This document shows, piece by piece, positions 19,371 to 45,898 of a stretch of DNA of 64,000 bases. Origin of the DNA: Daphnia pulex. Taxonomy: Eukaryota; Arthropoda; Branchiopoda; Diplostraca; Daphniidae. Each line of letters begins with the position of its first letter. The first letter of the stretch is position 1. A program made the translations under genes and the position numbers. The stretch is from the NCBI RefSeq assembly GCF_021134715.1, contig NC_060021.1:8030501-8094500 (forward strand). The letters run 5' to 3'. The notes under the pieces were generated by a model. The model saw nothing but the letters and a program-made list of their open reading frames with translations, did not search any database and was not told where the DNA came from.

Positions 19371-19516
19371 ATGGCTTAAAACTCACTTTATAGTTTATAC
19401 CAATTGAAATTAACAATGGCTCTTAAACTTTTCAGAAAGGTTTTCTACCTAATTAGACTTCATCATCTTGATGTATTACCACAGTAATAAAAAGAAACAT
19501 TGGTTGAAATTATTAC

Positions 19517-24312: not shown

Positions 24313-24994
24313 ATGAACACCAAGGTATAACAAGCACTTTAGTTCGTCTACTTTGAGAGGGTTATTGCTCACCTATTTCTTTCGCATGTGCACTAATAAA
24401 TTTTTGTAAATGTTAATAAAGGTAATGATGCTGATGGTCCTAGCGTCCGTTATGATCGGATCGTCCTTTAGTGCTCCCCAATTTTTGGGCCGTCCTGGAG
24501 GACTCATTGGACTTCGACGACCAGGAGGATTCGGAGGCCGGCCAGGATTCGGAAATCAGGGATTCGGCAATCAAGGGTTCGGCAACCAAGGATTTGGACC
24601 TGGTGAGAATAAAGATGATGTCATTTCCAACTGAAATTAATCGTTTTATTTTTCAACTCAAGGTTTTGGTGGAGCCAATGCTGCTGGACTCGGGAATGGT
24701 GCCGTTATTGGAAATCAAGCCATCGGAACAGGAACTGGTATCGCTAACGCTGGGCCAGGTAATTAAAAAACCTATAACTGAAATTATTTTTCCACAAACG
24801 ATAAAAGATAATATTTTAAACAATTAAAGGTGGATTTGGCATTGGTCTCGGTGTTGGCGCTGCTGTTGCAACTCCAATTGGCAACTTCGCGATCGGAGAT
24901 GGACAAAGTAAGTGACATAAAATAAAGACAGTACCTTTGACATCTCATTATACAAATTTTCACTTTCACAACAGGTATTTCCGTCGGAAAATAA
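24313..24994 (+). CDS. GRP1, secreted Gly-rich protein (128 aa)
   Basis: Exons 24313-24324, 24422-24602, 24663-24758, 24830-24907 and 24975-24994. The signal peptide (MNTKVMMLMVLASVMIGSSF) is split by a phase-0 intron after residue 4. The mature protein starts APQFLGRPGG and has a three-fold GFGNQ repeat (about residues 48-62). Then comes the family C-terminal module: FGGANAAG, GNGAVIGNQAIGTGTGIAN, GFGIGLGVG, ATPIGNFAIGDGQ, ending SISVGK. Introns 2-4 are all phase 1. Function is unknown; the composition suggests an extracellular structural protein. It is the first of eleven tandem paralogues in this window. The start is the only in-frame ATG in front of the first hydrophobic stretch. Confidence 0.85.
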
Positions 24995-25584
24995 AATGTA
25001 AATGTGGGTTTTCTGAACTCCGCTACTGCGCAATTTGTAGAAAGAAAAGGGATGCCGAAAGTGCCACTTTGGTGCGATCGATCGCATTGTATTTTATTTT
25101 AATTTTGATAACAAGCAAAACCACCCAACTGTAAATACGTGTTTTGTGGCCTTCTGAGTCAGGGTTGTCAACGCTGATTTATCCAAACTCTGTTGTATAA
25201 CACAAATAATAAATAACACGAACTTTTTAATAAATCTTGCCAAGTTCATCTTATTCTATTGTCAATTATCATTGTTATAAGGTACTTGACGCAGACGCTT
25301 GAAACGTCGTGATTATTTCCGTATTTCGGAAGTAATTCAATAATTATTTCAATAAGCAACCCATTGCTATATGGAAGCTGAACACTAAATACTAAATAGT
25401 CTATATTAAAAAGAACAATAGCAGGGATACTGGGAAAACCCAAATGCGTCCTCAGCAGAATTACCTTGGGATTTTCCCGAAACAAGTTTTTTGGAAGCGA
25501 AGTTTCGGCTTTGAAACTGGCAACATCGACTCTCTAGGAAATGCGCTGTGTAATTACTAAACAAAGAAGAAGGCAGAAGTTGCC

Positions 25585-25593
25585 TATTTAAAG
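25585..25593 (+). promoter_or_regulatory. TATA box of GRP2
   Basis: TATTTAAAG 109 bases before the ATG. The following leader TATCACCAACTTCT is shared with GRP1. Confidence 0.6.
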
Positions 25594-25693
25594 TCGACTA
25601 GTACAGGCACGTAAGCGCGCAGTTCTATCACCAACTTCTCAAGTTAAAGACCTTCCAGAATTTGCGGTCAAAACTTTGCAATACTCAACAGCC

Positions 25694-26297
25694 ATGAACA
25701 CTAAGGTTGTTTTTTTCGCCTTAAATCATTTTCACGTCATTATTAATTCAATTTTACGTTTCTGCTTTTATTTAGATAATGATGATGCTTGTCCTGGCTT
25801 CGATTTTGGTTGGAACTTCCTTTAGCGCACCTCAGTTTCTCGGACGCCCCGGAGGATTTAGACGACCGGGATTCGGAGGACCTGGTAAGGAAATTTCAGC
25901 AACAACATAATATCACTAACGCAATGCAATAGTTAATTAATTTATCCATCTTCGACAGGTTTCGGGGGAGCTAATGCTGCAGGATTCGGAAACGGATTTG
26001 TTCAAAATAACCAAGCAGTCGGAACAGGAACCGGAATTGCAAACGCAGGGCCAGGTATGAATAATAAACGATTGATAAAAGTTGATTGCAACGAACTATA
26101 ATATATTTTCAATTGAAACCCAAAAGGTGGATTTGGTATCGGTCTCGGAGTAGGTGCTGGTGTAGCAACTCCGATCGGTAATTTTGCTTTCGGAGACGGA
26201 CAGAGTAAGTCTACATTACATTTCCGCTAAAAACGAGCCCGAGTTCATAAGCTCATTTCTTTTTATCAATCACGCAGGTATTTCGGCTGGGAAATAA
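25694..26297 (+). CDS. GRP2, secreted Gly-rich protein (104 aa)
   Basis: Exons 25694-25705, 25776-25884, 25959-26054, 26127-26204 and 26278-26297. Closest relative is GRP1: signal peptide MNTKIMMMLVLASILVG, then APQFLGRPGGFRRPGFGGP. The C-terminal module has the same exon sizes (96, 78, 20 nt) and reads GFGNGFVQNNQAVGTGTG, then GVATPIGNFAFGDGQ, SISAGK. It lacks the GFGNQ repeats of GRP1. All introns after the first are phase 1. Confidence 0.85.
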
Positions 26298-27483
26298 ACG
26301 CATGAAGAAAATTTAGCATTGATAGCCATGGTAACTGATTGCTTAACCAATTTTATACATCATGCCCAATGTTCACGTTTTGTTCATTTCTCAATCCATG
26401 TATCATGTGTAATATAGTTGTCGAATATCCGAAGAAAAAAATGAACTCATTTCTCCGTATACTTTTTAAATTTTAAGTTAGCGAAGTGAATGGAATGTAT
26501 AGTAAATCGTCCGTAAGCGTCTTTGCGTGACGAAGTTCAGGTGCGGTCAAGCCAGAAACAGAAAACAGAATTCCAACCATGTACAGATAACCATTCTGGG
26601 CTATGTACATAAAAGGAAAACATTAAATATTAATAATAACAATCGTTACTGTAAAAAAAAAAAAATTCTTCTGTTAAGGAAGTTATAGAGTGCCCTGTAA
26701 AAAGCAAAGCTTGTTTCTTTATGATCTTAGTACGAGCTGTTGTTTCACAAAAATGAAGGTCATCGAATTTCTTAAGAAATAAAAGATAAAAAATGGAATA
26801 AGGGTTTCGAAAAAAAAAATATGAAAGGAATGAGGAGGAACAGCGTATTCCCGAGGTCCAAACAAACAACGAACAACCTTGTCGCAACTCTCCATGAGGA
26901 AGTGAAGACAATAATAGAGCAAAATAAAGGAAGTACAAAACTGAGTTGGCTCATTCGTAAAAGAAGGGTTTTCCAACTACGTTGTAGCAATAACTATAAA
27001 CTACCTTTACTGGCTCTGAGCCAACAACCGTATAGCTACCGCCCAACAAATATTAATGTCAAAACGCTCGAAAGTAGCTATCGGGAACTCTGCTGATGAG
27101 AAAGACCATCTCGTGAATGGGTGGAAAATATATAGTCCCAATAAAGGTAACTCTTGCATCTTATTGATATGGTACTCTGCTCCGAAATGAAACAGTATGA
27201 TAAAATATCTGTTACAGCATTCTTGATATATACATTCTAATGAAGAAAGATACAACCTTGAAAACCCAGAACAAGAGCATGGCCAAAACATCTAAATTCT
27301 AACATAAAAAAAGAACAAATGGCCGCTTTTCAACGGAAACAATTAGTTAGTAATTTCCCCCCAAAAAACGAAGATAGCTGGTTATTTAAAAAGGCTTGCT
27401 CATATCAAAATATTCCGCAGTTATGCAACGCCTTTCTGTGCCATCGAAACGCTACTTTAAAACATTTGGACTGTGCCGCCACC
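26298..27483. other. Intergenic, GRP2 to GRP3
   Basis: AT-rich with poly-A and poly-T tracts. Short ORFs on both strands near 26630-27090 have no family motif. TATTTAAAA at 27383 is the probable GRP3 TATA box. Confidence 0.4.
27383..27391 (+). promoter_or_regulatory. TATA box of GRP3
   Basis: TATTTAAAA in a TAGCTGGT-TATTTAAAA context, like other members of the array, about 100 bases before the ATG. Confidence 0.5.
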
Positions 27484-28133
27484 ATGGGAATCAATAAGGT
27501 AATCAAAGTTCCGTACCATATAGAATTTAAAGCGTGCATCAAAGTGCCTCACATCTTTTCTGCATACAGAGCGATATTATTATAGCTCAAGCGTTCCTGT
27601 ATAAGTTCATTCACTGCATTCTAAGTTTCTAACGACCATCAATTATTTTACGGAAATTTTCACGAAGGTGATGACGATCATGCTGATGCTTACGGCGATG
27701 GTGCTGGTTGGTACAGGGTTTACCGAGGACGACTTTCGCATATTTGTTGTTTCTCCTCTTGAGGGTCCCATCAGCAATCAACAAATATTTCTACCTTTCA
27801 CTGGTCTAGCCCGAGGAGGGAGACAGCAGGTTTTCCCGGCAGGAGGTAATAAAATTGTATTTCTCGCTTTTATGCTTTTCATTTCAATCACGCAAGTTGA
27901 TTGAACTTTGATTAGGCGAGACTTTGCCTTTGCGATCGACTTCGCCTTTACCGTTACCAGGTGGAGGTCTTGGCGTTGGAGGCGCGGTACCTTTGCGATC
28001 GACTTCACCATTGCCTCTACCAGCAGGCGGAGGACTCGGTGTCGGCGGTGCAGTGCCATTTCGATCAACTTCGCCTTTGAATTTACCGAGTGGAGGTCTC
28101 CGATTTGGCGGTGCCCTTGGATTGCCATTGTAG
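27484..28133 (+). CDS. GRP3, array member with a replaced C-terminus (136 aa)
   Basis: Exons 27484-27498, 27668-27845 and 27916-28133. The first two exons match the family: a short exon ending in AAG (MGINK), a phase-0 intron inside the signal peptide (VMTIMLMLTAMVLVGTGF), and a phase-1 donor after PAGG. The last exon does not encode the family module. It encodes three tandem units of about 21 aa of the form PLRSTSPLPLPGGGLGVGGA, the third diverged (PFRSTSPLNLPSGG). The N-terminal mature part (EDDFRIFVVSPLEG) recalls the DDDDRRRLFLVGP start of GRP4. The ATG has a good context (GCCACCATGG). Function is unknown. It could be a young gene or a decaying one, but the frame is intact. Confidence 0.7.
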
Positions 28134-29034
28134 AGTGTTGGAGATTTTGAAATGAATACACGTTTTAGTTACTTCGCAATATTATTTCATTGCGTCATAA
28201 CTCCTTACCACAATACATCTGGGTGCTTTCACGCCCCTGTAAAACTGAAAAGCAGAATTCAGATAGAAATCAAGTAAAGCTTTTCGAGAATTACTCAAGC
28301 CTAGAATTAAAAAAAAAGAAAAACATGTGCTATACTATTGAAAATCAAAACTCAAGTCTGATCGAAATGCGGAAGGAGAATAAGCAAGCACAGAGCCGAG
28401 CTATGCACCTGTTAGCGGAAGTAAAGAAACAAAAAGCGAGAAACTGGATCCAAAAGGTCAAACTTTCAAATCGGATTCAATGGCGCACGCTGCTTCTTCC
28501 TCTACAGTTTACCAACATACTGAACGACATGGATATGTAACATCAACTTGCGCAGGATTTATATCCACTAATTGCTGAAACTTGATCGAATTCGAGCACG
28601 ACATTTTAAAGGGCACACAGTTTCCCCTGACCGTATTATTATTGGCAACTCAATTGAAGGAGAAAATATGTTTCTACCCTTGAAAGCCCGATGAAACCAA
28701 TCCGTGTTTTTGTCATTCCTGATGTTGGGTTATCACCAGTGCCAACTGCCGCTTTGGTCGGCGATCGGATCTGTAAGATTAACGGCCTTCATCGAGACTA
28801 ATGAGGAGGTAAGAAAAAATCCTGATTTTTTGGAGTAGAAGGGGATTTTGCTTGACATTCAATGCTGTGGAAGTAAAGGTTAACAGGAAGCTTGATTGGC
28901 TTCAAGACAGATCTGCTGCAAAGCTGCTGGCTTATTTAAAGCAGTGCTTGATGACAGTCAGGCAGTAGCTCAACAGCTTTCACAGTTCCACAAAACACTC
29001 AGAGGATATACAATCTATAAAACTCTTCTCTACA
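28134..29034. other. Intergenic, GRP3 to GRP4
   Basis: No supportable gene; a Lys-rich open stretch near 28190-28540 looks like chance. TATTTAAAG at 28933-28941 is the likely GRP4 TATA box. Confidence 0.4.
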
Positions 29035-29772
29035 ATGAATACTAAGGTAAACTAAATTGTTTGATTGTTCCAGCTGGCTAACTGTTATTATATCTGCTAG
29101 CGATAGCTTTCTATACGCTCTCGTATTTGATTTCGAACATATTTGTGGTCCTCAATCAATAATGATTTCCGTCTCTCACCAGGTTATGATGCTGATTCTT
29201 TTGGGGATGGCGTTGGTTGGGCCAGCTCTTTCCGATGACGACGATCGTCGTCGCTTGTTTCTTGTTGGTCCAGCAGGTCGTCGTCCTCGTCCCCTTCAGC
29301 AATTATTAAGACCTCTAATTGGAGGAGCTTTAGCAGGACGACCCCTGATTGGAGGTAAAAATTTGATTTCGAATTTCTATTATTTTCACTTTGAATTTAC
29401 AATTGTTTTGTTGTTGACAAGGTTCGCCTTTGGGAGGTCTGGGTGGCGGAGCGAATGCTGCCGGAGCCGGTAACGGTGCTGTTATAGGGAATCAAGCTAT
29501 CGGTACAGGTACCGGTATCGCCAACGCTGGCCCAGGTAAAATTTAGTGAATCGGAAGATGTTTGTTTTACACTGTACAATTACAAATATGCATTCCCGAT
29601 CAAACAGGTGGTTTCGGCATAGGAGTCGGCATCGGAGTTGGTATTGCCACCCCACTGGGAAATTTTGCTTTCGGAGATGGAAACAGTAAATGATACCTTA
29701 TTCTAATAATAATATGCTTTACAATTTTGTCTGATCAAATATCCCTTTGCAGGCATTTCCATCGGGAAATAA
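29035..29772 (+). CDS. GRP4, secreted Gly-rich protein (131 aa)
   Basis: Exons 29035-29046, 29183-29354, 29422-29535, 29608-29685 and 29753-29772. Signal peptide MNTKVMMLILLGMALVGPAL, then an unusual charged start DDDDRRR, Arg/Pro/Leu-rich sequence, and the family module (GANAAGAGNGAVIGNQAIG, GTGTGIANAGPG, GFGIGVGIGVGIATPLGNFA, SISIGK). The third exon is 114 nt instead of 96, adding six residues (SPLGGL) before GGANAAG. It keeps the terminal intron that splits AGC (Ser) before ISIGK, as do GRP1, GRP2 and GRP10. Confidence 0.85.
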
Positions 29773-30359
29773 ATGAAAGATTACAAGTAACCTGACATCC
29801 TGATGTCGATGTAAGGTGCCCGGATAGTGATGGATGTACCTGTCTTTGAACTGAGTATTTATAAATCAAAAATTCGTTGGATGACAGCACGCGGTATAGC
29901 TCATTAGAGTTTAGATTGAATACTCAATTTCTGTTGTGTGTAATATAAGTGATGTAAAAATGTTGACTTAATGCGTACAAGTTACCTTGTGCGCATGTAT
30001 GCTGGAAATAAAAAAATGGCTTTTGACACTTTACATTATTACTTCTAAAAGACCATCAATTTTTTTAGTATGTGTATAGTTGATAAATTCATTACCGTAT
30101 TAATTAATATACCGTTACACACAATTTACTACTGATACTCATTTTTGACCCAGCAACCATGGCCCGTTATTGTTGTGTGCGAGAAGGGGCCAACAAGCCG
30201 ATCGACTTCACTCCATATATGTAAATATGAAACAACAACTAATAAGCTGCAGAGTGCAAATAAGGAGAAGGACGATGAACTTGGCTCGTATTGGGCTAAG
30301 GAGTTATCGATGAGATTTATTACATTGGAAAAAGATAACTTGCGTGATATTTAATTATG
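29773..30359. other. Intergenic, GRP4 to repeat copy B
   Basis: Probable GRP4 3' UTR with AATAAA-like sites (around 30006), then AT-rich sequence. No gene seen. Confidence 0.4.
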
Positions 30360-31650
30360 TCAGGAAGTGCCGGTGTGGCAGCAAGTACCTCTTGTTGGAA
30401 AAATCAAAAATTGTTCAAGTTGTACTTTGCTTCAAGTTCTTGAAGTTCAAATATTTCTGAATTTGATTTTTTATCAACAGGCAAAGTTGCGGGGTACAAA
30501 AACAGGCCTGATCTGACGTTCTACACGTGAGCTACAGTATTTAATGAACCCTGACTGAGAAAAACAAAAACAGCAAGATAAAACAGTTGCAGTCAACTGC
30601 ATGGCTCTGGAATAATCGTACTCCGTACTATGACACGATTAACAATCAAATCACACCAAATAGCAAAAAGGAAGAAAAGAGATGAATTTGTCCTACCTTT
30701 CAGCCTGGGAAATCCACAGCCCGGCATCCAAAAGTTGAATCCACGACCAGCAGGGATAAGTAAAAGGGAGTCCTCGTAAATACACCCACATTCACACGGG
30801 CGTACACGAGGACATTTAAAGAAAGGGGAATTGATGAGATCCTCAACTCGGTCGACACTGGAAGTTTCTCCAATTAAACGGGCTGCTGTTTATCTAAATA
30901 AAAAAATTCCAACAATGAGTTCCGACAAATATTTAGAGAAACAATAACAAGCAAGGTATTTAAGTTGAGAATAAGACAGTTGTAAATCAGGGGCATACAC
31001 TAATTGTTAATAAACAGGAAAATTGAAGGTTTCCATGTAATACATGTCACATTCAGGTTATAATAAAAGTAACGAAAATTATATTACCGAAGTAATGATA
31101 CTGTGATTGTTAGTGATGACAGGAGGTCATCAGTCAAATCATATGACTGCAGGTCCAGCACAAGCAAAACTTTGCTGTTACGATGGCTGGCTCAGGCCTC
31201 AAATCTGCATAGGATAAATATAGTGCAAACAAACTAACATGAATTGACAAGGGAATAAATAATGCTAGTCAGGAAGTAACAACTTGGAACAAGTTTAACT
31301 CTTCTATTTAAGCTCCCATAGGCCATAGTCATTCCATTTTTATTCTGAGTATTTACCTGCCAAACAGCATGGAGAAGATAGCATGAAAAATGCAACACCA
31401 AAGTTGACAGGACGATGACCGCACTTTTGTAATTTTTTTATCGGGCATCCACGTTCAAAAGAAAAAGTGATTATTCCGTTTTTCTTTTTTGAAGTCTTTA
31501 ACTCTTCTTTTCGAAACTTGTAAACGACAACAAATTTGTAGCAGACGACAATAATCTTTTAATGATCAATACTTAAGAATTAAGATATCGATTAGAATTT
31601 ATTAAAGACAGGACCCTCTTGGAAGCCAGGAGGGAATAAAATATCTTGTG
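30360..31650 (+). repeat. Dispersed spliced-looking repeat, copy B
   Basis: About 1.3 kb similar to copy C (same orientation) and copy A (inverted). Read on the minus strand it has exon-like blocks with GT/AG borders: GATAAACAG then a block ending GAAAG-GTAGGACAAAT, and TATGCAG then a block ending CGGTAATAT. A 40-nt hairpin (30772-30811) lies in the first block. Frames are interrupted and not shared between copies. It separates the GRP1-GRP4 group from GRP5-GRP9. Confidence 0.7.
30772..30811. other. Conserved 40-nt hairpin in repeat copy B
   Basis: CCTCGT pairs with ACGAGG, and inside it ACACCC pairs with GGGCGT with one wobble, leaving a loop of about eight bases. The hairpin is present in copy C at 41733-41772, with a shortened loop form in copy A near 1755-1790. 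Confidence 0.6.
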
Positions 31651-32303
31651 ACACTTAATTATATAATAAGATGACATTTCCAGTCATTCCTTTAAATAAC
31701 TCCTGCAGTGATTCAACTTGGTTATTATGCAAACTTCGTTTGAAATGTCAAGTTTAAAAAAATGTCCTCATTTTCCTTTAAAAAGGGGGATTTCCGCAGT
31801 TATTAGCCAATCATTTGGGTCATTTTATTTTGTCATTGTTTTTGGTGTTGGGGATTTTCTACTTTATTTTGCGGTATTACTCAGGGACCCCAAGCTCTCG
31901 AAATGGTCGTTAGTGTCTTAGTGAATAGCGCGAAGATTAAACGAAATAAAATTCCCATCAAGTTATTCGATTGCGCATAGAAAGTTGACGAACGAGTTTA
32001 CATCGCAAAACTTGCATGTTGGGTTTTTACTCGAATAAACTCCCCAAGGCAATTTCCGTAACCGGCTCGTGCATCACAATCAGCGCCTTTATTTTATTTT
32101 TATTATTTTTTTTATTTTCATAACAAGTTGAAATAGCCTTCGGCCGTGCAGTTTCTAGTTTCCCTATAGCTATTCTCATCGTCGCTTGTGTTGATATAAG
32201 TCTCCGTTGGACTAGAAGTAGAGTTGCAGTCCTATCGGCTCTCGATCTCGATCAAGACATTTATCTTTGCTTTTACTTGCAGCTGTACAAGATTCCTTAC
32301 ATC
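31651..32303. other. Intergenic, repeat copy B to GRP5
   Basis: AT-rich. An ORF of 67 codons at 31718 has no family features. No TATA box with the array consensus was found for GRP5. Confidence 0.4.
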
Positions 32304-32868
32304 ATGAACAAGGTAAATTATTTATTTATTTGTAACAGAAGTGTGCGAAAATATTTGTTTAATAATAATAATGTGATCCTTGTGTTATTTATTTTATCAA
32401 GACAATTTTGCTGCTGTTGGTTGTCGCTATGGTCGGATGCGCATTTGGCCGACCCCAGTTTGGTGGTCAAACTCCTTTTAGACCAGGAGGTAACTTTCAG
32501 CTTGGCGGAAATCGGCCACCACCACCAGCCTTCCCGGGACAGACTTGTAAGAAACCAATTTGAATTGCTAACAGCATCACCTAAACTAAACATTGAATTG
32601 GTTTAAACGTAATGTGCTTTTAAAAAATATTTAGTGTTCAACACCGGATCGGGGCAAGTGGTTGGAACCGGAACTGGTATCGCTAACCCCAGCGCAGGTT
32701 TGTTTATTAAGAGTGGAGAATGACTTTAATTTAGCTCAATTACTTACCAAGGTAATCTATCTTCTCTCAGGTGGCGTTGGCATTGGTCTCGGTGTTGGTG
32801 CCGCAGTTGCTTCCCCCGTTGGAAATTTCGCCATTGGTCAAGGAGAAAGCGTATCCACTGGCAAATAA
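32304..32868 (+). CDS. GRP5, secreted Gly-rich protein (104 aa)
   Basis: Exons 32304-32312, 32402-32546, 32635-32697 and 32771-32868. Signal peptide MNKTILLLLVVAMVGCAFG, mature start RPQFGGQTPFRPGGNFQ, Pro-rich NRPPPPAFPGQ, then a shortened family module. Exon 3 is only 63 nt: the GANAAG/GNGAV part is missing and it begins LFNTGSGQVVGTGTGIAN. The last exon (98 nt) is the fusion of the 78-nt and 20-nt exons, reading GVGIGLGVGAAVASPVGNFA and ending SVSTGK. The GCAFGRPQ signal-peptide junction is shared with GRP7 (and SAFGRPQ with GRP6). Confidence 0.82.
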
Positions 32869-33229
32869 GGAAATCAATATTTGAATCATGATCCGTCCAA
32901 TCATGAAAATTCTGTCACGTTATTTCGTCTTTCTATATTCTGTTTTCTGTTTCGACAAAAGAAATAACGTACGCCAAATATTTACCGGGAAACATTTTGC
33001 CGGGCATCTTGCTGACCAGTTAACCTTGGCATTCAGTCTTCTTCTTATTATTGTTATTATGTCTGGCAATATATACATATGATTTGAATGCTTCTGGTTG
33101 TTTTGGTTTTTTTAAAAGTCGCATTGCTATGTACGCATAGCAAGGAGATCAGGGAATTTTCGTAGGTACCAGCGCACCGGATGACATATTACGAATAGCG
33201 CTAGTGCTCAGTATGTTGTGCATATACTA
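32869..33229. other. Intergenic, GRP5 to the GRP6 promoter
   Basis: GRP5 3' flank. A 64-codon open stretch is probably chance. No other feature. Confidence 0.4.
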
Positions 33230-33463: not shown

Positions 33464-34186
33464 ATGAATAAGGTATGTAAATGTGATGGAAGAAATCACC
33501 CCTTACAAGTTAATTGAAAAGAAATATTTCGTTCTCTTAGATCATTTTACTATTACTGGTGGTTGTCGCACTGGTGGGAAGTGCATTTGGAAGACCCCAA
33601 CATCATGGTCATCATCATCATCATCACCATCATCATGAACATAGACCCCATGGTGGCGGGTTTGGCGGAGCTCCTGGTGGCGGGTTCGGCGGAGCTCCTG
33701 GGGGTGGGTTCGGCGGAGCTCCTGGTGGCGGGTTTGCTGGCGGTGCTCCTGGAGGATTTTCAGGTGGAGCTCCTCTTGGTGGTGGCGGCTTCTTAGGACC
33801 GCAAGGTGGTAAGTAAATCATTTGGAGTGATGCCAGAGATAACTAAAATAAAATTTCGTCACTACAGCGTCTAAACTCTAAAGTAATTGTAAATCCATAT
33901 CGAATAGGTTTCGGTGGAGCCAATGCTGCAGGAGCCGGGAACGGTGCGGTTATTGGCAATCAAGCCGTCGGAACAGGAACCGGAATTGCTAACGTCGGGC
34001 CAGGTATGACTATTTGTTTTTCATTTGAACAACACAAACCGAGGAACGAAAATTAATTGCATTTGATTTGTGAAAAATTATTACCTAGGTGGTTTTGGCA
34101 TTGGTTTGGGCATCGGAGGTGCGATAGCCACTCCACTTGGAAACTTAGCCTTCGGCCAAGGTGAAAGTCTTGCAGTCGGCAAATAG
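33464..34186 (+). CDS. GRP6, His- and Gly-rich secreted protein (156 aa)
   Basis: Exons 33464-33472, 33541-33808, 33908-34003 and 34089-34186. Signal peptide MNKIILLLLVVALVGSAFG, then RPQHHG followed by a run of nine His, EHRPHGGG, four FGGAPGGG-type octapeptide repeats, then AGGAPGG and SGGAPLGGG. The family module follows (GGANAAGAGNGAVIGNQAVG, GIANVGPG, GFGIGLGIGGAIATPLGNLA) and ends SLAVGK. The His run would bind metal ions or be pH-sensitive (inference). The terminal intron is absent. Nearest relative is GRP7, with which it shares promoter and HHGH..HRPHGGG head. Confidence 0.87.
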
Positions 34187-34534: not shown

Positions 34535-34606
34535 ATGGGCGAAATTACATCACCAATTGGAAATTCCCCCCTCGGTCAAGGTGAAAGCATCCCCATCAGT
34601 AAATAA
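34535..34606 (+). pseudogene. GRP relic: last-exon fragment
   Basis: Reads GEITSPIGNSPLGQGESIPI then SK and a stop, matching the end of the family module (ATPLGNLAFGQGES...VGK) with substitutions at key Gly residues. No splice acceptor, signal-peptide exon or other module exon is found in the 340 bp before it. It is a leftover of a deleted array member between GRP6 and GRP7. Confidence 0.7.
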
Positions 34607-35116: not shown

Positions 35117-35790
35117 ATGAATAAGGTAAGCAAACGAAGAACACAACAAATGATCTTAGATTTATAGACAATGTAATAAGCTACAAATTGATTGAAAACT
35201 CTTACCTTTCCTTCTAGACAATTTTGCTTTTGGTGGTCGTCGCTATGGTGGGATGCGCATTCGGAAGACCCCAGCATCACGGTCATGGTCATAGACCCCA
35301 TGGTGGTGGTGGTTTTGGCGGAGCCCGCCCTGGTGGTTTCGGTGGACCTCCTGGTGGATTTCCTGTTGGTGGTGGCGGCGGCTTGTTAGGACCGCAAGGC
35401 GGTAAGAAAATCATTTCGATTGACAGCGATAACCAAAATAAATGATAGCTTTTAATAGACCACCTACAACTTCTAAATCATTGAAAAATTATTAATTGAT
35501 GTCATTATAGGATTCGGGGGAGCGAATGCTGCCGGAATCGGTAACGGAGCTGTCGTAGGAAATCAAGCTATCGGAACAGGCACTGGAATCGCTAACGCCG
35601 GCCCAGGTACATAATACTTGCCATTTGCACACTGCAACTACGGCATTGAATTCAAGAACAAAAATTAATTCCAGTCAATTTTGTTATTTCAGGTGGTTTT
35701 GGCATTGGTTTGGGTGTTGGAGGAGCTGTGGCGACTCCATTAGGAAACCTAGCCTTCGGCCAAGGTGAAAGTCTTTCAGTCGGCAAATAA
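35117..35790 (+). CDS. GRP7, His- and Gly-rich secreted protein (128 aa)
   Basis: Exons 35117-35125, 35218-35401, 35511-35606 and 35693-35790. Signal peptide MNKTILLLVVVAMVGCAFG, then RPQHHGHGHRPHGGGG, a Gly/Pro-rich FGGARPGGFGGPPGG linker ending GGGGGLLGPQGG, then the family module (GANAAGIGNGAVVGNQAIG, GFGIGLGVGGAVATPLGNLA) and SLSVGK. It has the same architecture as GRP6 but a shorter His run (HHGHGH) and fewer repeats. No terminal intron. Confidence 0.87.
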
Positions 35791-36227: not shown

Positions 36228-36750
36228 ATGTTCAAGCAGGTAAGGTTACCTGTGTAGCTGATATGATTTTAAAGAAGATGTTGGTTTGATTACTAAATCT
36301 TTCTTTCCTCCTAAGACGATTTTCATTTTGGTGGTGGTTGCAATGGTTGGAAGTGCGCTTGGAAGACCCCAGAGACCTCAGAGACCAAACAGACCCATTG
36401 CTGGCGGTTTCTTACCTGGAGCAGGTGGTCAGAAAATCAATCAAATTCATTAAAATCGTTAAATACGTTTCTATATTCTATCATCTCTCAAAGGTTTAGG
36501 AGGAGCGAACGCTGCTGGACTCGGCAGTGGTTCTGTCGTAGGGAACCAAGCCATCGGACAAGGAACCGGAATCGCTAACGCTGGACAAGGTAACCCCATA
36601 ATAAGGTGGATGTTATACTGATTTCACCCAATCATTTTCATAAATCAAACAGGCGGATTTGGTATTGGTCTCGGTGTTGGTGGCGCTGTGGCCACTCCGC
36701 TTGGTAACCTAGCCTTCGGTCAAGGTGAAAGCATTTCAGTCGGTAAATAG
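36228..36750 (+). CDS. GRP8, secreted Gly-rich protein (104 aa)
   Basis: Exons 36228-36239, 36316-36424, 36494-36589 and 36653-36750. Signal peptide MFKQTIFILVVVAMVGSALG, then RPQRPQRPNRPIAGGFLPGA, then the family module (GGANAAGLGSGSVVGNQAIG, QGTGIANAGQG, GFGIGLGVGGAVATPLGNLA), ending SISVGK. There are no His repeats. Exon sizes 96 and 98 nt match GRP6 and GRP7. Confidence 0.86.
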
Positions 36751-37584
36751 GCTCGTAAATAGGAAATCAAAAACTGAGATGTTACTGATCTAATTGCTAT
36801 ACACCTATCAATTTCATCTTTGGCGGACACCAATTGATCTTGTATTCCTTCTTTCTGATTAGTGAATCCAATACACATTTAAAATGATTTACCATTTTGT
36901 GCTTATTGTTTCTTACAAAGAAGTGCTGTCGATTGCCAATGGCGAATGGAAGAAGCGCTATGCAACAGAAGCGCTATCAGCAGTGTTGTAGAGGTGAACG
37001 AAAGGTAGACGTGAACAACATTTTTAAGAGCGCTCCATAAATGACACACCTATAGCTAGTTGTAGTTTGACCTTGTTCATAAACCGGCTGAAACTGCTTC
37101 GCATCAGTTCTGTACAAAAGTTTAAAAAATAAAAGAAAATAGATTTCTCGCCGTGAATCGGGCAATAACCACGCGTCTAACAGCAAACGGAAATGACGAA
37201 AATTTCCCCCCGAAATAAAATTACTCGGAGGATGTTTTCAAGTGCCCAATGACAGTTGTTTCATCGCACTCTTCAGCTCCAGACCTCCAACAGAACTTGT
37301 CGTCTTTTAATTGAAGAAAACTCGGCAGGTGCTGCAAATTTTTGCCGCTAAGAAATTAATAGCAAAAGGAAATAGCTGTGATTAAAATACGGTAAAGTTT
37401 TGGTTTCGCTAAAATGTTATTACACGGTACCGGTACGTAGTTTAAATGTTTTAATCGAATAAACACCTTCCGCAAAACTGTAAAAAAGAGAAAAGAACAT
37501 CGTCGTTTTTTGAGTAAAACTATTTCCTTTTGACTTTTGACTTGTTACTAATAAGAAGAATAAAAATGCAGGTTAGTTTAAAAA
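36751..37584. other. Intergenic, GRP8 to GRP9
   Basis: AT-rich; no gene supported. An ATGCAG-GTTAG near 37566 lies just before the GRP9 start and may be a short upstream ORF. Confidence 0.4.
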
Positions 37585-38738
37585 ATGAAAAGATCGATTG
37601 GAATTTTGGTTGCGTTGACTTTCGCTCTAACAGCTGCTCGTCCTAGTCAAGAAACAACAACCGAAATGTCCGACGAAGCAGAAACCGAAAAACAGTTCAA
37701 AGAAAATGCCCTGAGCAATGCTGATGGCGAACATCCTCTTTTCTCGGGATACGAAGAAGGCTATCCAAATTACCAGCAACTCGCTGAGTATGGTCAGCAA
37801 GGAACAGGATATGGCGGCCACGGTCCAGAGGCCGTCGGCGTGAACAACGCTGGGTGGAATGGAGGAGGTCTCTCATCGCAAGTTTTCCCCGAGGAAAGTC
37901 AAGAGCCGTTTAATCTTCTACCTCCAACCCATCAGCAAGCGTTGGCCCCATTATTCCAAAATCACGAATCCTCGCCACCTTTCCCACCGCAACAAGGGTT
38001 CCCGTTTTACCCGCAAGAAGAAGCTCCGACATTTCCAGCAACGCCTGAGACGTCTCCATTTTTTGAAAACGCAACTCCTTTAGTAGCGCCAACACTACAG
38101 GGAAACCAGACTCTGCAAGAGAACCAATCAAGTCCCGACTCTCTCATCGGATCACGTAAGAATATACCTGTGCCATCATTTTTAAATTGATTGAAATTGA
38201 TTTCCCATGGTAACAGGACATGGCGACATCTAGCGTTTTCTTTTACTCTCTTTCGCAATGTTTTTCGTGGAATACGTAGACATTAGCGTGCAAACAATAA
38301 GACGCATTGTCAATAACGGGGTCTAAATGCGAAGGGCACTAAATGTCTGGGAATGTTAGCCATTTGATTAATTATTGAATAGATTGAAGATAATAATTCA
38401 GTTCCAATAACTGGTTTTAATATCAAGTTTTTCCACTTCAAATATAGTGTGGCAGCTTTTGAATCATTCTCAAAAAGGGAACGCAACGGCTGGCGGAGCG
38501 GGAAGTGGGGCCGTTCAAAACGGCTCAGCCACAGGCTCAGGAACAGGTGTCGCTAACGTCGGATTTGGTATGATTTGATTTGGATTGCACACCAGAGTCA
38601 ACAATTCAATTAACCATCTTATGTGTGCCACAACAATCAGGTGGATTTGGCATTGGCTTGGGAATCGGAGGTGCAATTCAGACCCCGCTCGGAAATTTAG
38701 CCTTTGGACAAGGCAGCGGAGTTGCAGTTGGAAGATAA
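37585..38738 (+). CDS. GRP9, acidic Pro/Gln-rich protein with the GRP module (262 aa)
   Basis: Exons 37585-38155, 38448-38567 and 38641-38738. Signal peptide MKRSIGILVALTFALTAARP. A long low-complexity middle follows (about residues 20-190), acidic at first and then rich in Pro, Gln, Phe and Asn (QQGFPFYPQEEAPTFPATP), with N-glycosylation sequons (ENAT, GNQT, ENQS). The C-terminus is a diverged family module (AGGAGSGAVQNGSATGSGTG, VANVGFG, GFGIGLGIGGAIQTPLGNLA), ending GVAVGR. There is no intron inside the signal peptide. The 120-nt module exon aligns without gaps to the joined exons 2 and 3 of GRP10, so these two are sister genes. Confidence 0.85.
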
Positions 38739-39918
38739 AGCTCAATATTGTTCAAGTAATTTTTCTCTCAAGAATATGTTAACTTGTTGACACACGTATA
38801 GACTAACCAATAATTGTGTATCCGTGTGTACAAACAAAAGGTGCGATTGTGGTTGTGGCTTTCTTACTGCTGGTCATGCGGTCGTCCTCGGTCGATAATA
38901 CCGTGCCCTTGGTCTGTATAATGTTTTCAGGGAAATACACGACTAAATAACTGGTCTAATCTGGTGTCAACTCATTATAATTGGTTAGATTGATTATTTA
39001 CAATTAAAAAATCTCTTAAAAATCCTAATAATTGTAGAAGAAATAATAATTTTAAAAGTTGCAAAAGAAAGAACAAGGATGTCAAGAAAACCCCATCGTT
39101 ATAAGTACCGATTTCTCAACGTTATATAATAATTAATCCCGCCCCGCGTATCCGGGAAAAGAAAAATTTCCCAGAGTGACCATTTTGAGAAGCCAAATTA
39201 ATACGTGTGTCAATGGTATTTCCCAGACTTTGACAGACGTCAACTGATGAGCCCATTTCCGGATTATTAACAAATGAATTACGTTACATACACAAGCTGA
39301 AAGGAGATCCGCCGAATATCCCAATGCGTTTCGAATCGCATGTTGTCTGAACAATAAATCGTCAGTCGACAGTCCAATGCAAGGCTAGTTGTTTATAAAT
39401 GGACCTTGAGCTAATAAGAACGCAGTTGCCGTAGTGTCGAGACTCGAGACCGTGTGAGTCACAGTTCTCTCCTCAAAAGAAGACAGGGTTATTTCTTAAA
39501 AAAAAAAAAAATACAAAAATAAAAAGACTTGTAGTGTGTAGCTACTTGGGTGTGTTTGCAGACTATACCTGCGCTTGAAAAATCCACTGCGCTGGGGAGA
39601 GTTTCTCTCTAGCGCGCACAAGGCCTTTGACCATTTCAGTCTTTCGTACGCGATAAACCCCGACGGACGGTTCGACTGGAGTGGTGTGTCGCTCTTTGAT
39701 TTTCTAGGTTTTGTTCGATATTTTGTCTCACCTGTAAAGTCGGTTATTATAGCTACTTTTCAAAGGTATACACGCAATCGAAAAACAAAACAGCTTTTTT
39801 TTATGATTTCGCTGCTGCGCCTTTGAAAACAAGACAACAACTTTTTTGGAGCACCGCGAAATTGTTTTTCATTTCTCTTGCTAAATTTTTAAGGATATAT
39901 TAAACTTGCATTTTACAG
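38739..39918. other. Intergenic, GRP9 to GRP10, with probable leader exon
   Basis: No other gene. TTTATAAATGG near 39393 is a possible TATA box. GRP10 starts directly after a TTTTACAG acceptor, so a non-coding first exon should lie around 39420-39560. Confidence 0.45.
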
Positions 39919-40840
39919 ATGAAGGTGCTACAGTTACTTCTTGTTGTTACCGCCCTATTCGGGATTGGATTAGCAGTGCCCGTACCTGACCCCCAATTTC
40001 TTCAACTAGGACAACAACAACCTTTCTTTCAGAGACCGAACAGACCTCGACCTTTCCTCCGACCCGGTGGCATTTTGTCCGGATTACTTGCTAATGGACA
40101 ACAGCAACCGCAACCTGCGGTCTCAGCCACACCGGCTGTAGAGGCTGTTCCTCACAAAACTCCGGAGGCCGTTGTTCCAGCACCAGTAACTCCTGTGGCT
40201 AGTCCTACAGGAGAAGTGGCTGCTGTTCCAGATGCCAGCGCTGCACCTAAAAACCCAGGGTCCTTGTTCACTCCGGGAGGATCGACGGAATCAAATAACG
40301 ACATTAATAAGCGTAAGAGAAACATTCGCTTTCTTCTTCTTTCAGTTTAATCATACTATTCTTTTTGTCCTGTGTTTTGTGCAAAGTTCTAGGAATGCTA
40401 AACGGTGGCCAGTTTGGCTCAGCCACAGCCGGTGGTGCTGGCAATGGTGCCGTACAAGGTGCGCTGGCGAATGGAAATTATTAATTTTTCAAAATAGATA
40501 TTTCGAATAATAATTTCTTAAAAAAAAAAAAAAAACCTCAATCCTTAGATGGTGCTGCTATCGGCCAAGGAACTGGCATAGCAAACGTTGGGCCAGGTAT
40601 GTTTTACGACACTTCAAATTTCTTTCTAGAGTGAACTGCCCCTATAACAACATTGGCAATAAACTGCGCAGGTGGATTTGGGATCGGTCTGGGCATTGGC
40701 GGAGCTATTGCGACGCCGCTAGGCAATTTAGCGTTCGGACAAGGCGACAGTAAAGACACGCATATACCGCAAATTTAAAAGAGTTTACTAATTATTACCA
40801 TTCTTTTTTTAAAATTAAAGGTATAGCGGTTGGAAAATAG
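39919..40840 (+). CDS. GRP10, Pro/Ala-rich protein with the GRP module (203 aa)
   Basis: Exons 39919-40312, 40387-40458, 40549-40596, 40672-40749 and 40821-40840. The ATG follows a splice acceptor. Signal peptide MKVLQLLLVVTALFGIGLA, mature start VPVPDPQFLQLG, then Gln/Pro/Arg-rich and Ala/Pro/Val-rich spacers (PAPVTPVASPTGEVAAVPDA). The family module (TAGGAGNGAVQ, GAAIGQGTGIANVGPG, GFGIGLGIGGAIATPLGNLA) ends SIAVGK. An extra 90-nt phase-1 intron (40459-40548), absent from every other member, splits the first module exon into 72 and 48 nt. The terminal intron before the last 20 nt is retained. Confidence 0.85.
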
Positions 40841-41294
40841 CCAAGGATATATTCTTGCCTTAAAAGCAGCACTCGATCTTGAAAGGAGAACGGCAAAGAA
40901 AACCAGTCTTGATAAAATTAATTCATCAATTCCAAGAAATTACTGACACTAAATTATTACTAAAATACCATTTCTACCAGATTTTTTTTCACACCTCACT
41001 CTGTTGAATTACTTTAGCTAATTCGTCTAATACAACTCGGATTTATCTTTTATCTCTCACAATATAATATAACATTTAGAAAGGCGTAGAAAAAATTGTT
41101 AATCTAAGAAAAAAGGAAGTTTTCGGATTCTGTAGCTGCTAGCTAGCTGCTTAGCAATAGCAAACAAAAGGTAGACGCATGTACAGTCTGCACGGGTTTG
41201 GCATAGCCTTGAGATATTTGTACATTCACGTGAGTTAATTCACCCTAACGGAGGTTCTGTTACGTAAGATCATTTTCGTGTTTTTCCCATAAAT
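40841..41294. other. Intergenic after GRP10
   Basis: GRP10 3' flank, AT-rich. No feature. Confidence 0.4.
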
Positions 41295-42690
41295 GAACGA
41301 GAAGGTTCCGGTGTGGCGGCAGGTCCCTCTTGGTCTTGTTGCACTTTGCTTGAACCCTCGAAGTGTTTAAAGCTCAAATGTTTTTGAATGTGAATATGGT
41401 TTACCCACAGAAAAAGTTGTGAGGTACACAACAAAACAAGCCTGATCTGCAGTCGTTCAACAAATGAGATTTTTTAGTGAACCATGACTGAGAAAAAACA
41501 AAAACGGAGAGAGAAAACAATTGCAGTCAACACGCCTAGCTCAGGAAGAAACATAATCCGTGACTACGCAACGATTCATAATCAAACCCACCAAAAAATT
41601 GTCATAAAGGAAGAATAGAGATCAATTTTGTCTCCTACCTTTATGCCTGGGAAATACAGCCAGGCATCTACAGTTGCTCCATCCATCCGATGAAGAGTTA
41701 AATCACCCCAGACGGGATAGGGTAAAGGGTGTCCTCGTGAATACACCCACATTCACATGGGCGTACACGAGGTCATTTTGAAGAAAGGGTAAAATGATAG
41801 ATCCGTCACTCGGCCGACATCGGTAGTTTTTCCAATGCAATGGGATGATTCTTATCTAAACAAAAATAGAAAATGGGTTACGAGAAAATATTGACAGAAA
41901 AAACAAGAAGTTGAAAATGAGACACTGCATAAACCCTAATTGTTACATAAACTGCATTGAAGCAGGTAATGCAGCATTACAATATCTAGTAGGTCACAGG
42001 TAAATTCAAGTAAAGGAAATCATTACCCAAGCGATGATCCTGAGATTGTTGCTAATAATGACAGGTTTATCACCTGCACAAGAAAAACTTGCATGTTGTG
42101 TGGTTATGATGGCTCCAGCCTCAAATCTGAAAAAAAGGAAAAGGTTACATAGTGAAATCAAACTTCCATGCATCGACAGGGCAATTGGGCAATCACATGA
42201 TAAACGCCAGTCAGGAACTAACATTTTGCAATCTTGGAACAGGTTTAACTCTTCTATAGCTCCCACAATCATTTAATTTGTATACTTAGTTTCATTTACC
42301 CGCTAAACAGCATGGAGTATGACGGTTATCAAAAATAAATAATTCTATTAGAGTATAAATCTTGAACTTGGTCTGACTTTTTCGAAATTTTCAACTAAAC
42401 AAAAGCAGACGACACTCACACTTGTCCAAAGTCCAATTTTCTTCTAATCAAAATTAGCATGCTTACGATTACGATAATAGGATATCGATAGAAATTATAA
42501 AAAGCTCCCCCTTAAAAATCCAAACCTCTCAAAAACGATAAGGGAATAAGTCGATGGAATAAGTTTTAGTTGAAATCTAATTTACCATTTCGGTTTTGGT
42601 TTGTATTTCTCCGGTGTTAAGACCCCAGAAATACATCCATTTGCACAAATAAAAAAATAAAAACAGCAGGACCCTCTGGAGGCCAGGGAA
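41295..42690 (+). repeat. Dispersed spliced-looking repeat, copy C
   Basis: Most complete copy, about 1.4 kb, parallel to copy B. Minus-strand exon-like blocks: GATAAG then a block ending ATAAAG-GTAGGAG, TTTTTTCAG then ATTTGAGGCTGG ending CTTGG-GTAATG, and CATGCTGTTTAGCGG-GTAAAT. Near its right end it shares AGGACCCTCTGGAGGCCAGG with 31610-31635 of copy B. No frame is open through the blocks. Confidence 0.7.
41733..41772. other. Conserved 40-nt hairpin in repeat copy C
   Basis: Same stem arms as 30772-30811 (CCTCGT/ACGAGG and ACACCC/GGGCGT), with changes mainly in the loop. Confidence 0.6.
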
Positions 42691-45072
42691 AGAATTCACA
42701 TTTAATTAGTTGAATATGTTCAAATTCAAGTCTTTTCATGTGTTTTATGGAAGTCTCTATTTTACAGAACGCGCAACGCCCTCGAGTTTCAGCTCCCGCA
42801 ATCAACTACTGTAATATTGATGATATAACACACACGTGAGGTAACACAACAGAACCAGACACTGTAAATACAATCACCTATACCACTTAGTTGAAAGTGG
42901 TAATACTACCTATATAGTTAACATAACTATATTGGTTTAATATTAGTTGTTAGACGACGAACTTTATTTATATTTGAATAACCACCTTTATTTTTATGAT
43001 AGTGTTCTTCACTGCGACCTCATTTTCTTTCAATCGCCTTGCTTTAAATAGCATACCGCATACGTGAGTTCGCTGAGTACGCGCTGATTTTTACAAACCG
43101 GATTATGTTTCTGTAGCAATCTTACATGGGACCGGATAACAAATATACACGGAGAAATGTCTTTTCTGTAGTGTCTTTAAAAGATATCTTACACCATTTT
43201 CAGGCTGAAGTAATGGCCTTAGTAAAATTTATCAATCTATTCAAAAGTGCGACAAAATATTTCGTTAAACCTGCTTTCACTTCGTTACTATGCCATTCTA
43301 AGCGCATACTACAGTATCATAGAATAAATATCAGTGCATCAAATTCGTGGAATTGATCGGAGAGCGCGCAAGTCGCAACAGCGTCAACACGTTGAATATT
43401 TTCTAAGAATCCAAGAATGTTTTTTTTTACCAGATCTACCGTGCAATGTTTTCCATGTCATAAATATGCCCGAACTTCCATCTTCTCGCTACCTGCCAAA
43501 ATGCAAAAAAAAATCTTCAAAAAAACTTTCAGTCGTGCAACGCAACTTATTGAAGCCAGATAACCTTGAGTATAATAATTCAGGTTTGTTGGAAATGTCG
43601 AATTATTTTATGTATATCGCATTTGATTGTGGAGAAACGCCATCTTTTTGATTACCACAAGTATCTTGGCACATTCAATATAATATTACAGCGGTCAATC
43701 GTGTTCAATGCCAATCATTCTTCTCACAAGTACTATACACTTACATATTTTCTAGACAAAACAGGTGGTCCGTGAACTTAATCCATTGTTTGGATTCCCC
43801 ATTAAACGGATTAAGTTTGAATTAAATTCCGTTATACTTACTTTACTTGGACGATATTTAGGAAGATGACGAATGCTCTCGTAGTCAGTTTTTCCATCTT
43901 CCGTCTGGCCCCTTTCGACTCACATCAGCTGGGATGGAATGAGAAACTAGGACACGAAGTCACACCATTTGTCATATCTTAAAGAGTTAAATGGGGCGCT
44001 TTGAGTTCATAACCATATAGGGATGTTCTACATATTATGCTGCCCTTTCACGTTTGTAATTAGTGACCTAATAGCGTTGAACGCCCGGAAAAACCCAAAT
44101 GCACATAATGTCAGCGGATGAGCCTATCAGAAAAGAATTAAAAAAATTTATTCGTAAAACAAATTCACTTAAATCCAAGTTACCTGAATGATATGGCGAA
44201 TCAGCGCTTCAGTGAGATATTAAAAATAACCGTCAAGTAAAGGAAACTGAGTGAAAGAAATGAAACGAAAATGTTCGTGACTAAAAATGGGGGAGAGGGG
44301 GTTTACCACATAAGACATCATTAACTCGTGACAGCTCCGCGACGCCAGTATTCGCTTTTTTCTTTACCTCAGGCGAAACATATTTCAAATTCAAAAGGAA
44401 AGCCTTGAATGGCCGCACCGTGATAAACCAAACTCATGCCCACGAGCATCTTCACCTTGATAGTCCTTGCCGTGACAACAAGGAACTGCTAGTAGCCATA
44501 CTTTTTGCCTAAATAGTTGTACGATTATTCTTCTACGGTATCTTCGTGAGTGGTTTTTTCCATGGCCAGCCAAAAGCCCTTGAAAGAGCCTCCAGCTCTT
44601 GGACGGTTCTATTAAAGAGGTGTCTTTTCTACAACACACATTATTGTGTACTTGTGCCTTCAGAGTGTTAGACGGCGGAAACTTCTTCTCTTTTGATACA
44701 TTACTCTTGTTATCCACAAAGGTAAACCTATACAAATAATTATTTCAGTATTAAAATGTTAATTCGAAATTGATACAAATTCGGAACTCAAAACATAACA
44801 CTTAAAGAGGTGTTGTACGAAAAGAATTTTTGCGCATGCGCAATTACTTGCCTCGTTATGTTGTACGGATTAAGTGGTTAAAATATTTACTCAAACTCTC
44901 TTTAAATCTTAGTTTATAGCAAAATATTGGACTCCCTTCTAATAGTACTGTATAAATTAAGAACTGTAAAAAAACAAACAAAAAAAAACATGTTAAGTTT
45001 ATCAAGGGATGATGCTGCGAAAAAGAAAATAATTTAGTATCTAAAAAGGGGAATTATATAACTATTCAACAG
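42691..45072. other. Non-coding stretch, repeat copy C to GRP11
   Basis: No gene that I can support. Open stretches at 43334-43651 (plus) and 44391-44735 (minus) are compositionally plausible but carry no recognised domain and no clean exon structure. Confidence 0.4.
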
Positions 45073-45898
45073 ATGAACGCAGCTATCCTTTTACTGGTGG
45101 CAGTCATCATCGGGTCGACGACCGCGCAGTTCTATGGAGTAGACCCTTACCGCCAATATGGAGGAGGATACAGGCCATACCGTAAATAAAATAATAGTTT
45201 CAGAAAAAAATCAATTAAAGACATGCAATAAGAATTTCTTTTGTAAATCTGAAACAGGACCACACGGAGGCTATGGTATCGTATAATTGAGAATAATATG
45301 AAATATGCGAATAATAACTTTAATGATGTATTTTACTTGATAGGAGGCTATCGTCCATACCGACCGTCTGGTGCTTATTACGGCGGCTACCCTGATCATC
45401 ACCATCATCACCATCCAGAACCTTACCACCAAGGAGGTTATGTTCCTAATCAGGGAGCTGGATTTGGTGGTCCAGTTGCTCCAGTTGCTCCAGCTCCAGG
45501 TGCTCCAGCCCCAGCTCCAGTGGCTCCGGCTGTAAATCCCACAGGCGGATGTAATGAAAAGAATGGCTTTATTTAAAAAATATTTTATTATAATGGCTTT
45601 GCTGCTTACAAATTTGTTAGTGGCTCCCGGCGCTGCCAATGCTGGAGGTGCAGGTAATGGTGCAGTACAAAACGGCCAAGCCGTTGGAACAGGTACTGGA
45701 ATCGCTAACGCTGGACCAGGTATGATACACACCTATATGATGAAAAGGCATGGCATACCTGTCAGACTAATTCAAACATCAAATTATATAATTTCAGGTG
45801 GATTTGGAATTGGTTTGGGAATTGGCCTGGCAGTTGCTACCCCATTAGGAAATCTTGCACTTGGAGAAGGAAACAGTGTTTCTGTTGGTAAAAAATAG
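45073..45898 (+). CDS. GRP11, Tyr/His/Ala/Pro-rich protein with the GRP module (177 aa)
   Basis: Exons 45073-45181, 45258-45275 (18 nt), 45344-45550, 45621-45719 and 45798-45898. The ATG follows TTCAACAG, so a non-coding first exon is likely. Signal peptide MNAAILLLVAVIIGSTTAQF, then Tyr/Gly/Arg repeats (YGGGYRPY, GGYRPYRPSGAYYGGYP), a DHHHHHHPEP His run, a PVAPVAPAPGAPAPAPVAPA stretch, then the family module (AANAGGAGNGAVQNGQAVG, GTGTGIANAGPG, GFGIGLGIGLAVATPLGNLA), ending SVSVGKK. The microexon encodes only RPHGGY plus a split codon. All introns are phase 1. The final exon is 101 nt, one codon longer than in the others. It is separated from the rest of the array by repeat copy C. Confidence 0.83.

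What the first reader, a model, noticed from the sequence alone, without database searches (positions are those of the whole stretch)
24313..45898. Array of eleven secreted Gly-rich genes sharing one C-terminal module
Ten of eleven genes end in the same ~60-aa module (GANAAG.GNGAV.GNQA.GTGTGIAN..G, G.GIGLG.G, ATP.GN.A.G.G, S.S.GK) joined to very different secreted N-terminal regions: GFGNQ repeats, His runs, FGGAPGGG repeats, Pro/Gln-rich acidic, PAPVAP, Tyr/Gly. I know of no named family with this module. A constant C-terminus with a variable middle suggests an assembly or anchoring tag for extracellular matrix, cuticle, eggshell or mucus proteins.
Basis: partly seen in the sequence, partly recalled or inferred. 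Interest (0 to 1): 0.8.

Follow-up and report, generated by a model that had tools for sequence, protein, structure and literature searches.

The report
Water-flea array of secreted glycine-rich genes
A water-flea chromosome carries a row of eleven small genes for probably secreted proteins, ten of which share one conserved glycine-rich tail with no match in the family libraries searched, and the tail looks suited to assembling material outside cells, though no experiment shows this.

Summary
Eleven spliced genes, all on the + strand, run from 24313 to 45898; ten end in the same 52-64-aa module. Module searches of the genome (133.19 Mb; size fits Daphnia pulex) found two further places: a displaced copy, g12, and a diverged relative, g13. 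Pfam (12 proteins), PDB, viral and prokaryotic searches found no relative; no eukaryote collection was available. The module is old and constrained: median pS 0.63 against pN 0.14. It alternates Gly with hydrophobic residues. g12 evolved g11's residues mostly by different codons. The N-terminal halves are not all unrelated: g1-g8 share a tiny first exon and intron phases, and six genes share a TATA position. So most of the array is one duplicated family with a hypervariable middle. Best reading: extracellular-matrix proteins whose tail is a silk-like beta assembly part (inferred). Rival: glycine-rich immune peptides; all 11 module proteins end GK, GR or GKK, a possible amidation signal. No expression data were held; both fold jobs were unfinished at the last polls.

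The parts
24313..24994 (+). g1, 128 aa, GFGNQ-repeat middle; module exons 24663-24758, 24830-24907, 24975-24994
   Evidence: spliced model; profile hits
25694..26297 (+). g2, 104 aa; module exons 25959-26054, 26127-26204, 26278-26297
27484..28133 (+). g3, 136 aa, the member without the module; GGGLGVGGAV and RSTSPLPLP repeats; shares the tiny first exon, phases and TATA position
   Evidence: a genome search with its repeat region at E <= 1 found only itself
29035..29772 (+). g4, 131 aa, Arg/Leu-rich middle; module exons 29422-29535, 29608-29685, 29753-29772
32304..32868 (+). g5, 104 aa; shortened exon A 32635-32697 and exon B 32771-32868
33464..34186 (+). g6, 156 aa, His run and FGGAPGGG repeats; module exons 33908-34003, 34089-34186
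34544..34606 (+). decayed exon-B remnant of a further copy (ITSPIGNSPLGQGESIPISK, stop)
   Evidence: (E 7e-5)
35117..35790 (+). g7, 128 aa; module exons 35511-35606, 35693-35790; closest at DNA level to the displaced copy g12
36228..36750 (+). g8, 105 aa; module exons 36494-36589, 36653-36750
37585..38738 (+). g9, 262 aa, acidic Pro/Gln-rich middle (mature charge -18); module exons 38448-38567, 38641-38738; ends GR
39919..40840 (+). g10, 203 aa, Pro/Ala/Val middle; module over four exons 40387-40458, 40549-40596, 40672-40749, 40821-40840
45073..45898 (+). g11, 177 aa, Tyr/Gly, His-run and PAPVAP middle; module exons 45621-45719, 45798-45898; ends GKK

Best explanation
A tandemly duplicated family of small, probably secreted proteins that build an extracellular material (cuticle, egg case, mucus, or a lining of gut or brood pouch). 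After signal cleavage, the constant 52-64-aa tail, rich in (Gly-X)n stretches, is proposed to stack as beta strands with the same tail of other members into a silk- or chorion-like assembly, while the freely evolving middle (His-, Pro-, Tyr-, Gly- or acid-rich) sets metal binding, cross-linking or hydration. Shown: the genes, their exon structure, the constraint on the tail, its alternation, the varied middle. Inferred: secretion, beta stacking, tissue and role.
For: Gene models; no Cys in 13 of 13 mature sequences, with mature starts chosen by eye. Tail kept by selection: median pS 0.63, pN 0.14 over 55 pairs of 11 genes. Gly/hydrophobic alternation in 12 of 13 tails examined, 0-9 of 5000 shuffles reaching the observed value; the exception is g3, which has no module (510 of 5000). 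Residue coupling: the displaced copy g12 is closest to g7 in DNA, yet 6 of its 7 exon-B differences from g7 are g11's residues, with identical codons at only 11 of 30 residues shared with g11; in 10 of 11 genes positions 23 and 25 of exon B hold one acid and one amide, in either order. Both suggest packing rather than a loose coil. Mature charge ranges from +4 to -18 across members, which fits materials better than one membrane-active peptide. TATA-like box at a fixed distance in 6 of 11 genes against 328 of 20000 random positions.
Against: No expression, proteomic or structural evidence; both fold jobs unfinished at the last polls. No cuticle domain found (Pfam). The GK end and mild positive charge of most members fit a secreted peptide as well. 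The rows of the alternation and TATA tests are related, so each is closer to one observation than to many. The all-site nucleotide tree puts g11 with g12 (support 46), against the DNA-sister reading on which the convergence rests.
Confidence: 0.55

Rival explanations
1. Secreted glycine-rich immune peptides: a clustered family of linear, Cys-free, mostly cationic proteins, C-terminally amidated from the Gly-Lys or Gly-Arg end and acting on microbes; the middle diverges under pathogen pressure.
For: 11 of 11 module proteins end GK (9), GR (g9) or GKK (g11), and the distant relative g13 ends in bare G: each is a usable amidation signal (recalled rule). Cu2_monoox_C domains, the kind found in PHM, are in the genome, though that family also covers other monooxygenases. 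Mature charge is +1 to +4 in 9 of 11 module genes. A 2009 survey could not recover antimicrobial peptides from the D. pulex genome (PMC2685406, abstract passage), so the slot is open. Glycine-rich antimicrobial peptides with similar signals and variable mature parts exist in isopods (armadillidins, PMC7017220 and PMC5031766, passages).
Against: g9 is strongly acidic (-18) and g10 is -1. The constrained part is the nearly uncharged Gly-X tail, not the cationic part. Gly is invariant at many places in the module, so the Gly before the last Lys is weak evidence. Armadillidin H showed no secondary structure (PMC5031766, abstract), unlike the ordered pattern here.
Confidence: 0.22
2. Exon shuffling: the module exons, bounded by phase-1 introns, were copied onto several unrelated secreted genes.
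For: Module exons lie between phase-1 introns; g9, g10 and g11 lack the tiny first exon in these models and have different signal stretches and middles.
Against: g1-g8 share the tiny first exon and intron phases; six genes share the TATA position; module-lacking g3 shares these too. A search with a g8 N-terminal stretch found only array members (g8, g7, g5). No search was made for module-free genes with a g9-, g10- or g11-like N-terminus, so for these three the rival stands.
Confidence: 0.12
3. Array under little selection: low-complexity genes kept alike by recent duplication or gene conversion.
For: Tandem arrays often convert (general knowledge); a few pairs are closer (pS 0.17 for g7-g12, 0.31-0.32 for g6-g12 and g6-g7).
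Against: Median pS 0.63 against pN 0.14 over 55 pairs.
Confidence: 0.03

Closest known systems
Barnacle Gly/Ser-rich cement proteins with silk-like stretches (PMC5099703, passages seen)
   Same: Arthropod low-complexity proteins with short silk-like G-X stretches beside charged or complex stretches; proposed beta-rich fibrils
   Different: Barnacle blocks are Gly/Ser/Ala/Thr-rich and repeated; here one tail of 52-64 aa with a nearly fixed order. No direct sequence comparison was made
Armadillidins, glycine-rich isopod antimicrobial peptides (PMC7017220, PMC5031766, passages seen)
   Same: Small secreted Gly-rich crustacean peptides with a variable mature part and similar signal peptides; reported only from terrestrial isopods
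   Different: Armadillidins are built of a varying G-rich tetrapeptide repeat; here the C-terminal module is the conserved part. No direct sequence comparison was made
Arthropod cuticular protein families (CPR, CPAP, CPLCG, CPLCP and others; recalled)
   Same: Tandem arrays, short signal exon, low-complexity Pro/Ala/Gly/Tyr middles
   Different: No cuticle domain found by Pfam in 12 of 12 proteins scanned; families without a Pfam domain were not tested
Attacin-, gloverin- and diptericin-type Gly-rich insect immune proteins (recalled)
   Same: Secreted Gly-rich domains
   Different: No Pfam match to any family in 12 of 12 proteins scanned

Membership tests
Chitin-binding cuticular proteins (CPR and CPAP types) | Chitin-binding domain of the R&R or peritrophin type | tested here: not met
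   Pfam scan of 12 family proteins (10 of 11 array genes, g12, g13; g6 not scanned) at E <= 5: 0 families
Gly-rich insect immune families held in Pfam (attacin, gloverin and kin) | Match to the family profile | tested here: not met
   same scans, 0 hits
Glycine-rich crustacean antimicrobial peptides (armadillidin type) | Antimicrobial activity and immune expression | not testable with these tools
   no expression or assay data held
Glycine-rich crustacean antimicrobial peptides (armadillidin type) | Cationic, Cys-free, Gly-rich mature chain | tested here: inconclusive
   Cys in 0 of 13; charge +1 to +4 in 9 of 11 module genes, -1 and -18 in the other two; Gly 16-39%
Amidated secreted peptides | C-terminal Gly followed by basic residues or stop | tested here: met
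   11 of 11 module genes end GK, GR or GKK; g13 ends G; g3 does not
Amidated secreted peptides | Amide on the mature C-terminus | not testable with these tools
   needs mass spectrometry
Silk-like beta assembly proteins | Alternating Gly-X stretches | tested here: met
   12 of 13 tails examined exceed shuffles; g3 does not
Silk-like beta assembly proteins | Forms beta-rich fibres or sheets | not testable with these tools
   needs experiment; fold jobs unfinished

The most novel reading that the evidence does not exclude
An undescribed crustacean protein module whose residues are coupled tightly enough that a displaced copy re-evolved another paralogue's set of residues, used as a common, possibly amidated assembly tail for a set of chemically different secreted proteins: a small natural kit of matrix proteins with one connector.
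Probability: 0.3. Interest if true: 0.65.

Novelty: new variant of a known kind. Interest (0 to 1): 0.4.

Why it matters
About 10,000 of 30,550 putative Daphnia pulex proteins had no known homologue in an earlier annotation (PMC3584848, start of abstract as listed). This family gives one such orphan-looking group a defined module, a gene count at this sensitivity (11 module genes, plus g3 and the likely relative g13) and direct tests. If the tail is a common connector, the family is a natural set of matrix proteins with one assembly part and varied chemistry. If it is immune, it could fill the reported gap in Daphnia antimicrobial peptides.

Tried and rejected
Exon A and exon B as an internal duplication: hhalign probability 1.1%, E 0.05; per-gene shuffles of nine genes gave 8 to 583 of 2000 reaching the observed score. 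Not established.

Bacterial or viral origin: scans with the module alignment gave 193 pattern matches in viral contigs and 75 in genome contigs, none confirmed by tblastn.

PDB relatives: one hit each at E 5.2 and 0.68, taken as chance.

Gene conversion as the cause of the conserved tail: rejected on pS. Conversion as the cause of the g11/g12 likeness: rejected for most sites on codon use, but four codons (AAC AGT GTT TCT) are identical in both, so a tiny conversion there is not excluded.

Literature: the lists of searches showed no paper on this family by title; of the papers listed in my searches I opened only some, and those by passages.

No fold search was made.

Flanks: the 10 kb on either side of the window (L025, L026) were fetched but not examined on their own; the genome searches cover them for the module.

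Full report
What is there. I built spliced models for eleven genes by hand. All lie on the + strand between 24313 and 45898, every intron is GT..AG, and every frame is complete. Eight of them (g1-g8) start with a first coding exon of 3-5 codons (such as MNTK or MNK) ending in phase 0, followed by an exon with a hydrophobic signal-like stretch and the variable middle; later introns are phase 1. The module is coded by exon A (GGANAAG.GNGAV.GNQA.GTGTGIAN.GPG) and exon B (GFGIGLG.GGA.ATPLGN.A.GQG.S.S.GK). In g1, g2, g4 and g10 a further intron sets off the last few residues; in g10 exon A is also cut by an intron; g5 has a shortened exon A. Gene g3 lacks the module but shares the tiny exon, the phases and the TATA position.

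Is it more than chance? Exon profiles hit the genes at 20-60 bits (exon A) and 51-72 bits (exon B). The profiles were built from these genes, so the hits are by construction; what matters is the background, at most 10.9 bits for exon A elsewhere in the window and at most 7.6 and 10.2 bits in 20 shuffles of the window in blocks of six bases. One sequence that was not in the profile, a decayed exon B near 34544-34606, scores 20.3 bits, E 7e-5.

Where else. The window lies at C5:8030501-8094500 of a held genome of 133,188,837 bases in 13 contigs. The size fits Daphnia pulex, 133.2 Mb (PMC12926508, passages, which name assembly GCF_021134715.1); the species is inferred from size and gene style, not proved. 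Two searches with single modules at E <= 10 gave 22 and 21 matches, all in the array except those at two places on the same contig. One is g12, with matches at C5:1644648-1644906, minus strand: an intact-looking gene of 85 aa with an 11-residue middle. The other is at C5:10550698 (g13), E 0.69 and 0.66 with the modules. Searching back with the g13 tail gave array and g12 matches from E 0.011 upwards, and one further match on C7 at E 3.9 that I take as chance. The g13 tail aligns along the module and carries a 15-residue repeat (27 of 75 identities at lag 15), and its mature start (RPQF) resembles the array's. I take g13 as a likely but unproven relative. These searches score only the best candidates and work exon by exon, so weaker members may be missed.

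Known families. Pfam gave 0 hits at E <= 5 for 12 proteins: 10 of the 11 array genes, g12 and g13; g6 was not scanned. PDB gave one chance-level hit per search. Viral and prokaryotic collections gave no confirmed locus. Six motif strings occur in 0 papers of the held library (no positive control was run). No eukaryote sequence collection was available, so I cannot say whether the family exists outside this genome.

Selection. Over 42 codons of the tail in 11 genes (55 pairs), the median proportion of synonymous differences is 0.63 and of non-synonymous ones 0.14. Most copies are old and the protein is kept; the closest pair is g7-g12 (pS 0.17). By rough global alignment over the same 11 genes the median identity is 0.71 for the module, 0.42 for the signal stretch and 0.39 for the middle; the last figure is inflated, because identity was divided by the shorter length in low-complexity sequence. 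Middle lengths run from 11 to 181 residues. Boundaries of signal and middle were chosen by eye.

Convergence. g12 matches g7 over 419 nt at 78%, through the intron and into the 3' flank, while its matches to g11 cover the module exons and only 7-13 nt beyond. In exon B, g12 uses the same codon as g7 at 21 of 24 shared residues, but as g11 at only 11 of 30. Yet 6 of the 7 residues at which g12 departs from g7 are g11's residues, and three of them (Leu10, Leu21, Glu23) occur only in g11 and g12 among the 11 genes. Trees on 43 codons are weak and do not all agree: third positions group g12 with g7 (support 67), the protein groups g12 with g11 (94), and all nucleotide sites put g12 with g11 (46) next to g7. 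I rest the sister relation of g12 and g7 on the non-coding match, not on these trees. Positions 23 and 25 hold one acid and one amide in 10 of 11 genes, in either order; g9 (Gln, Ser) is the exception. I read this as coupling between residues in a packed structure; that is inference.

Biochemistry. 13 of 13 mature sequences lack Cys. Net charge is +1 to +4 in nine of the 11 module genes, -1 in g10 and -18 in g9. In 12 of 13 tails examined Gly alternates with large hydrophobic residues beyond shuffles (0-9 of 5000); g3 does not (510 of 5000). The 11 module proteins end GK (nine), GR (g9) or GKK (g11), and g13 ends G. Amidation would need PHM; Cu2_monoox_C domains are in the genome, in a family that also covers other monooxygenases.

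Promoters. A TATTTAA or TTTAAA box begins 101-109 bases before the ATG in g1, g2, g3, g4, g6 and g7, 6 of 11 genes, against 328 of 20000 random positions. The genes are related, so this shows shared descent and kept promoters, not six independent events.

Mechanism. I favour a matrix role, with the constant beta-type tail as assembly part and the middle as variable chemistry (0.55). Immune peptides are the main rival (0.22). Nothing here shows tissue, secretion or assembly. Both fold jobs, on single exons, were unfinished at the last polls.

Verdict. A real, conserved, apparently unnamed family within a known broad kind (arthropod arrays of secreted low-complexity proteins), whose special feature is one constant tail.

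Noticed in passing
window 11532-15335 and 16114-19917: A perfect 3804-bp inverted repeat with a 778-nt spacer carrying Tyr/Thr-rich repeat reading frames (YYTTKAP, TTYAAPSHYTDALKYY). A genome search with one frame listed 150 scored places of 1525 candidates on many contigs, many as opposite-strand neighbours a few kb apart. I fetched six places chosen because they showed such a pair: in 6 of 6 the arms are 98.6-99.98% identical over 3.19 kb or more, some cut by the fetch, while the best alignments between the seven elements (window included) are 82.5-96.5% identical. So a dispersed family of large palindromes whose arms stay alike within each copy. Fold-back mobile element, arm-to-arm gene conversion or partly an assembly artefact: not settled. 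One literature search listed nothing on it by title among the 8 of 394 papers shown.
   Followed up: partly
window 45720-45797: The g11 intron between the two module exons is 78 nt, in frame and free of stops, so a transcript that kept it would stay open and gain 26 residues.
   Followed up: no
window 9802-10191 (-), 51439-52607 (+), 54047-54352 (-): Neighbouring frames match pinin/SDK/memA, C2H2 zinc fingers and the ArsA-type ATPase above Pfam's cut-offs; a possible ELP1 piece at 49175-49429 (-) is below its cut-off (10 frames scanned, 5 with a match at E <= 0.01).
   Followed up: no
L023 (C5:1640000-1649999), minus strand: Similarity of the g12 locus to the array goes on past the gene into the g7-g8 spacer (126 nt at 76%), so a genomic segment, not a spliced copy, seems to have been copied about 6.4 Mb away.
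   Followed up: partly
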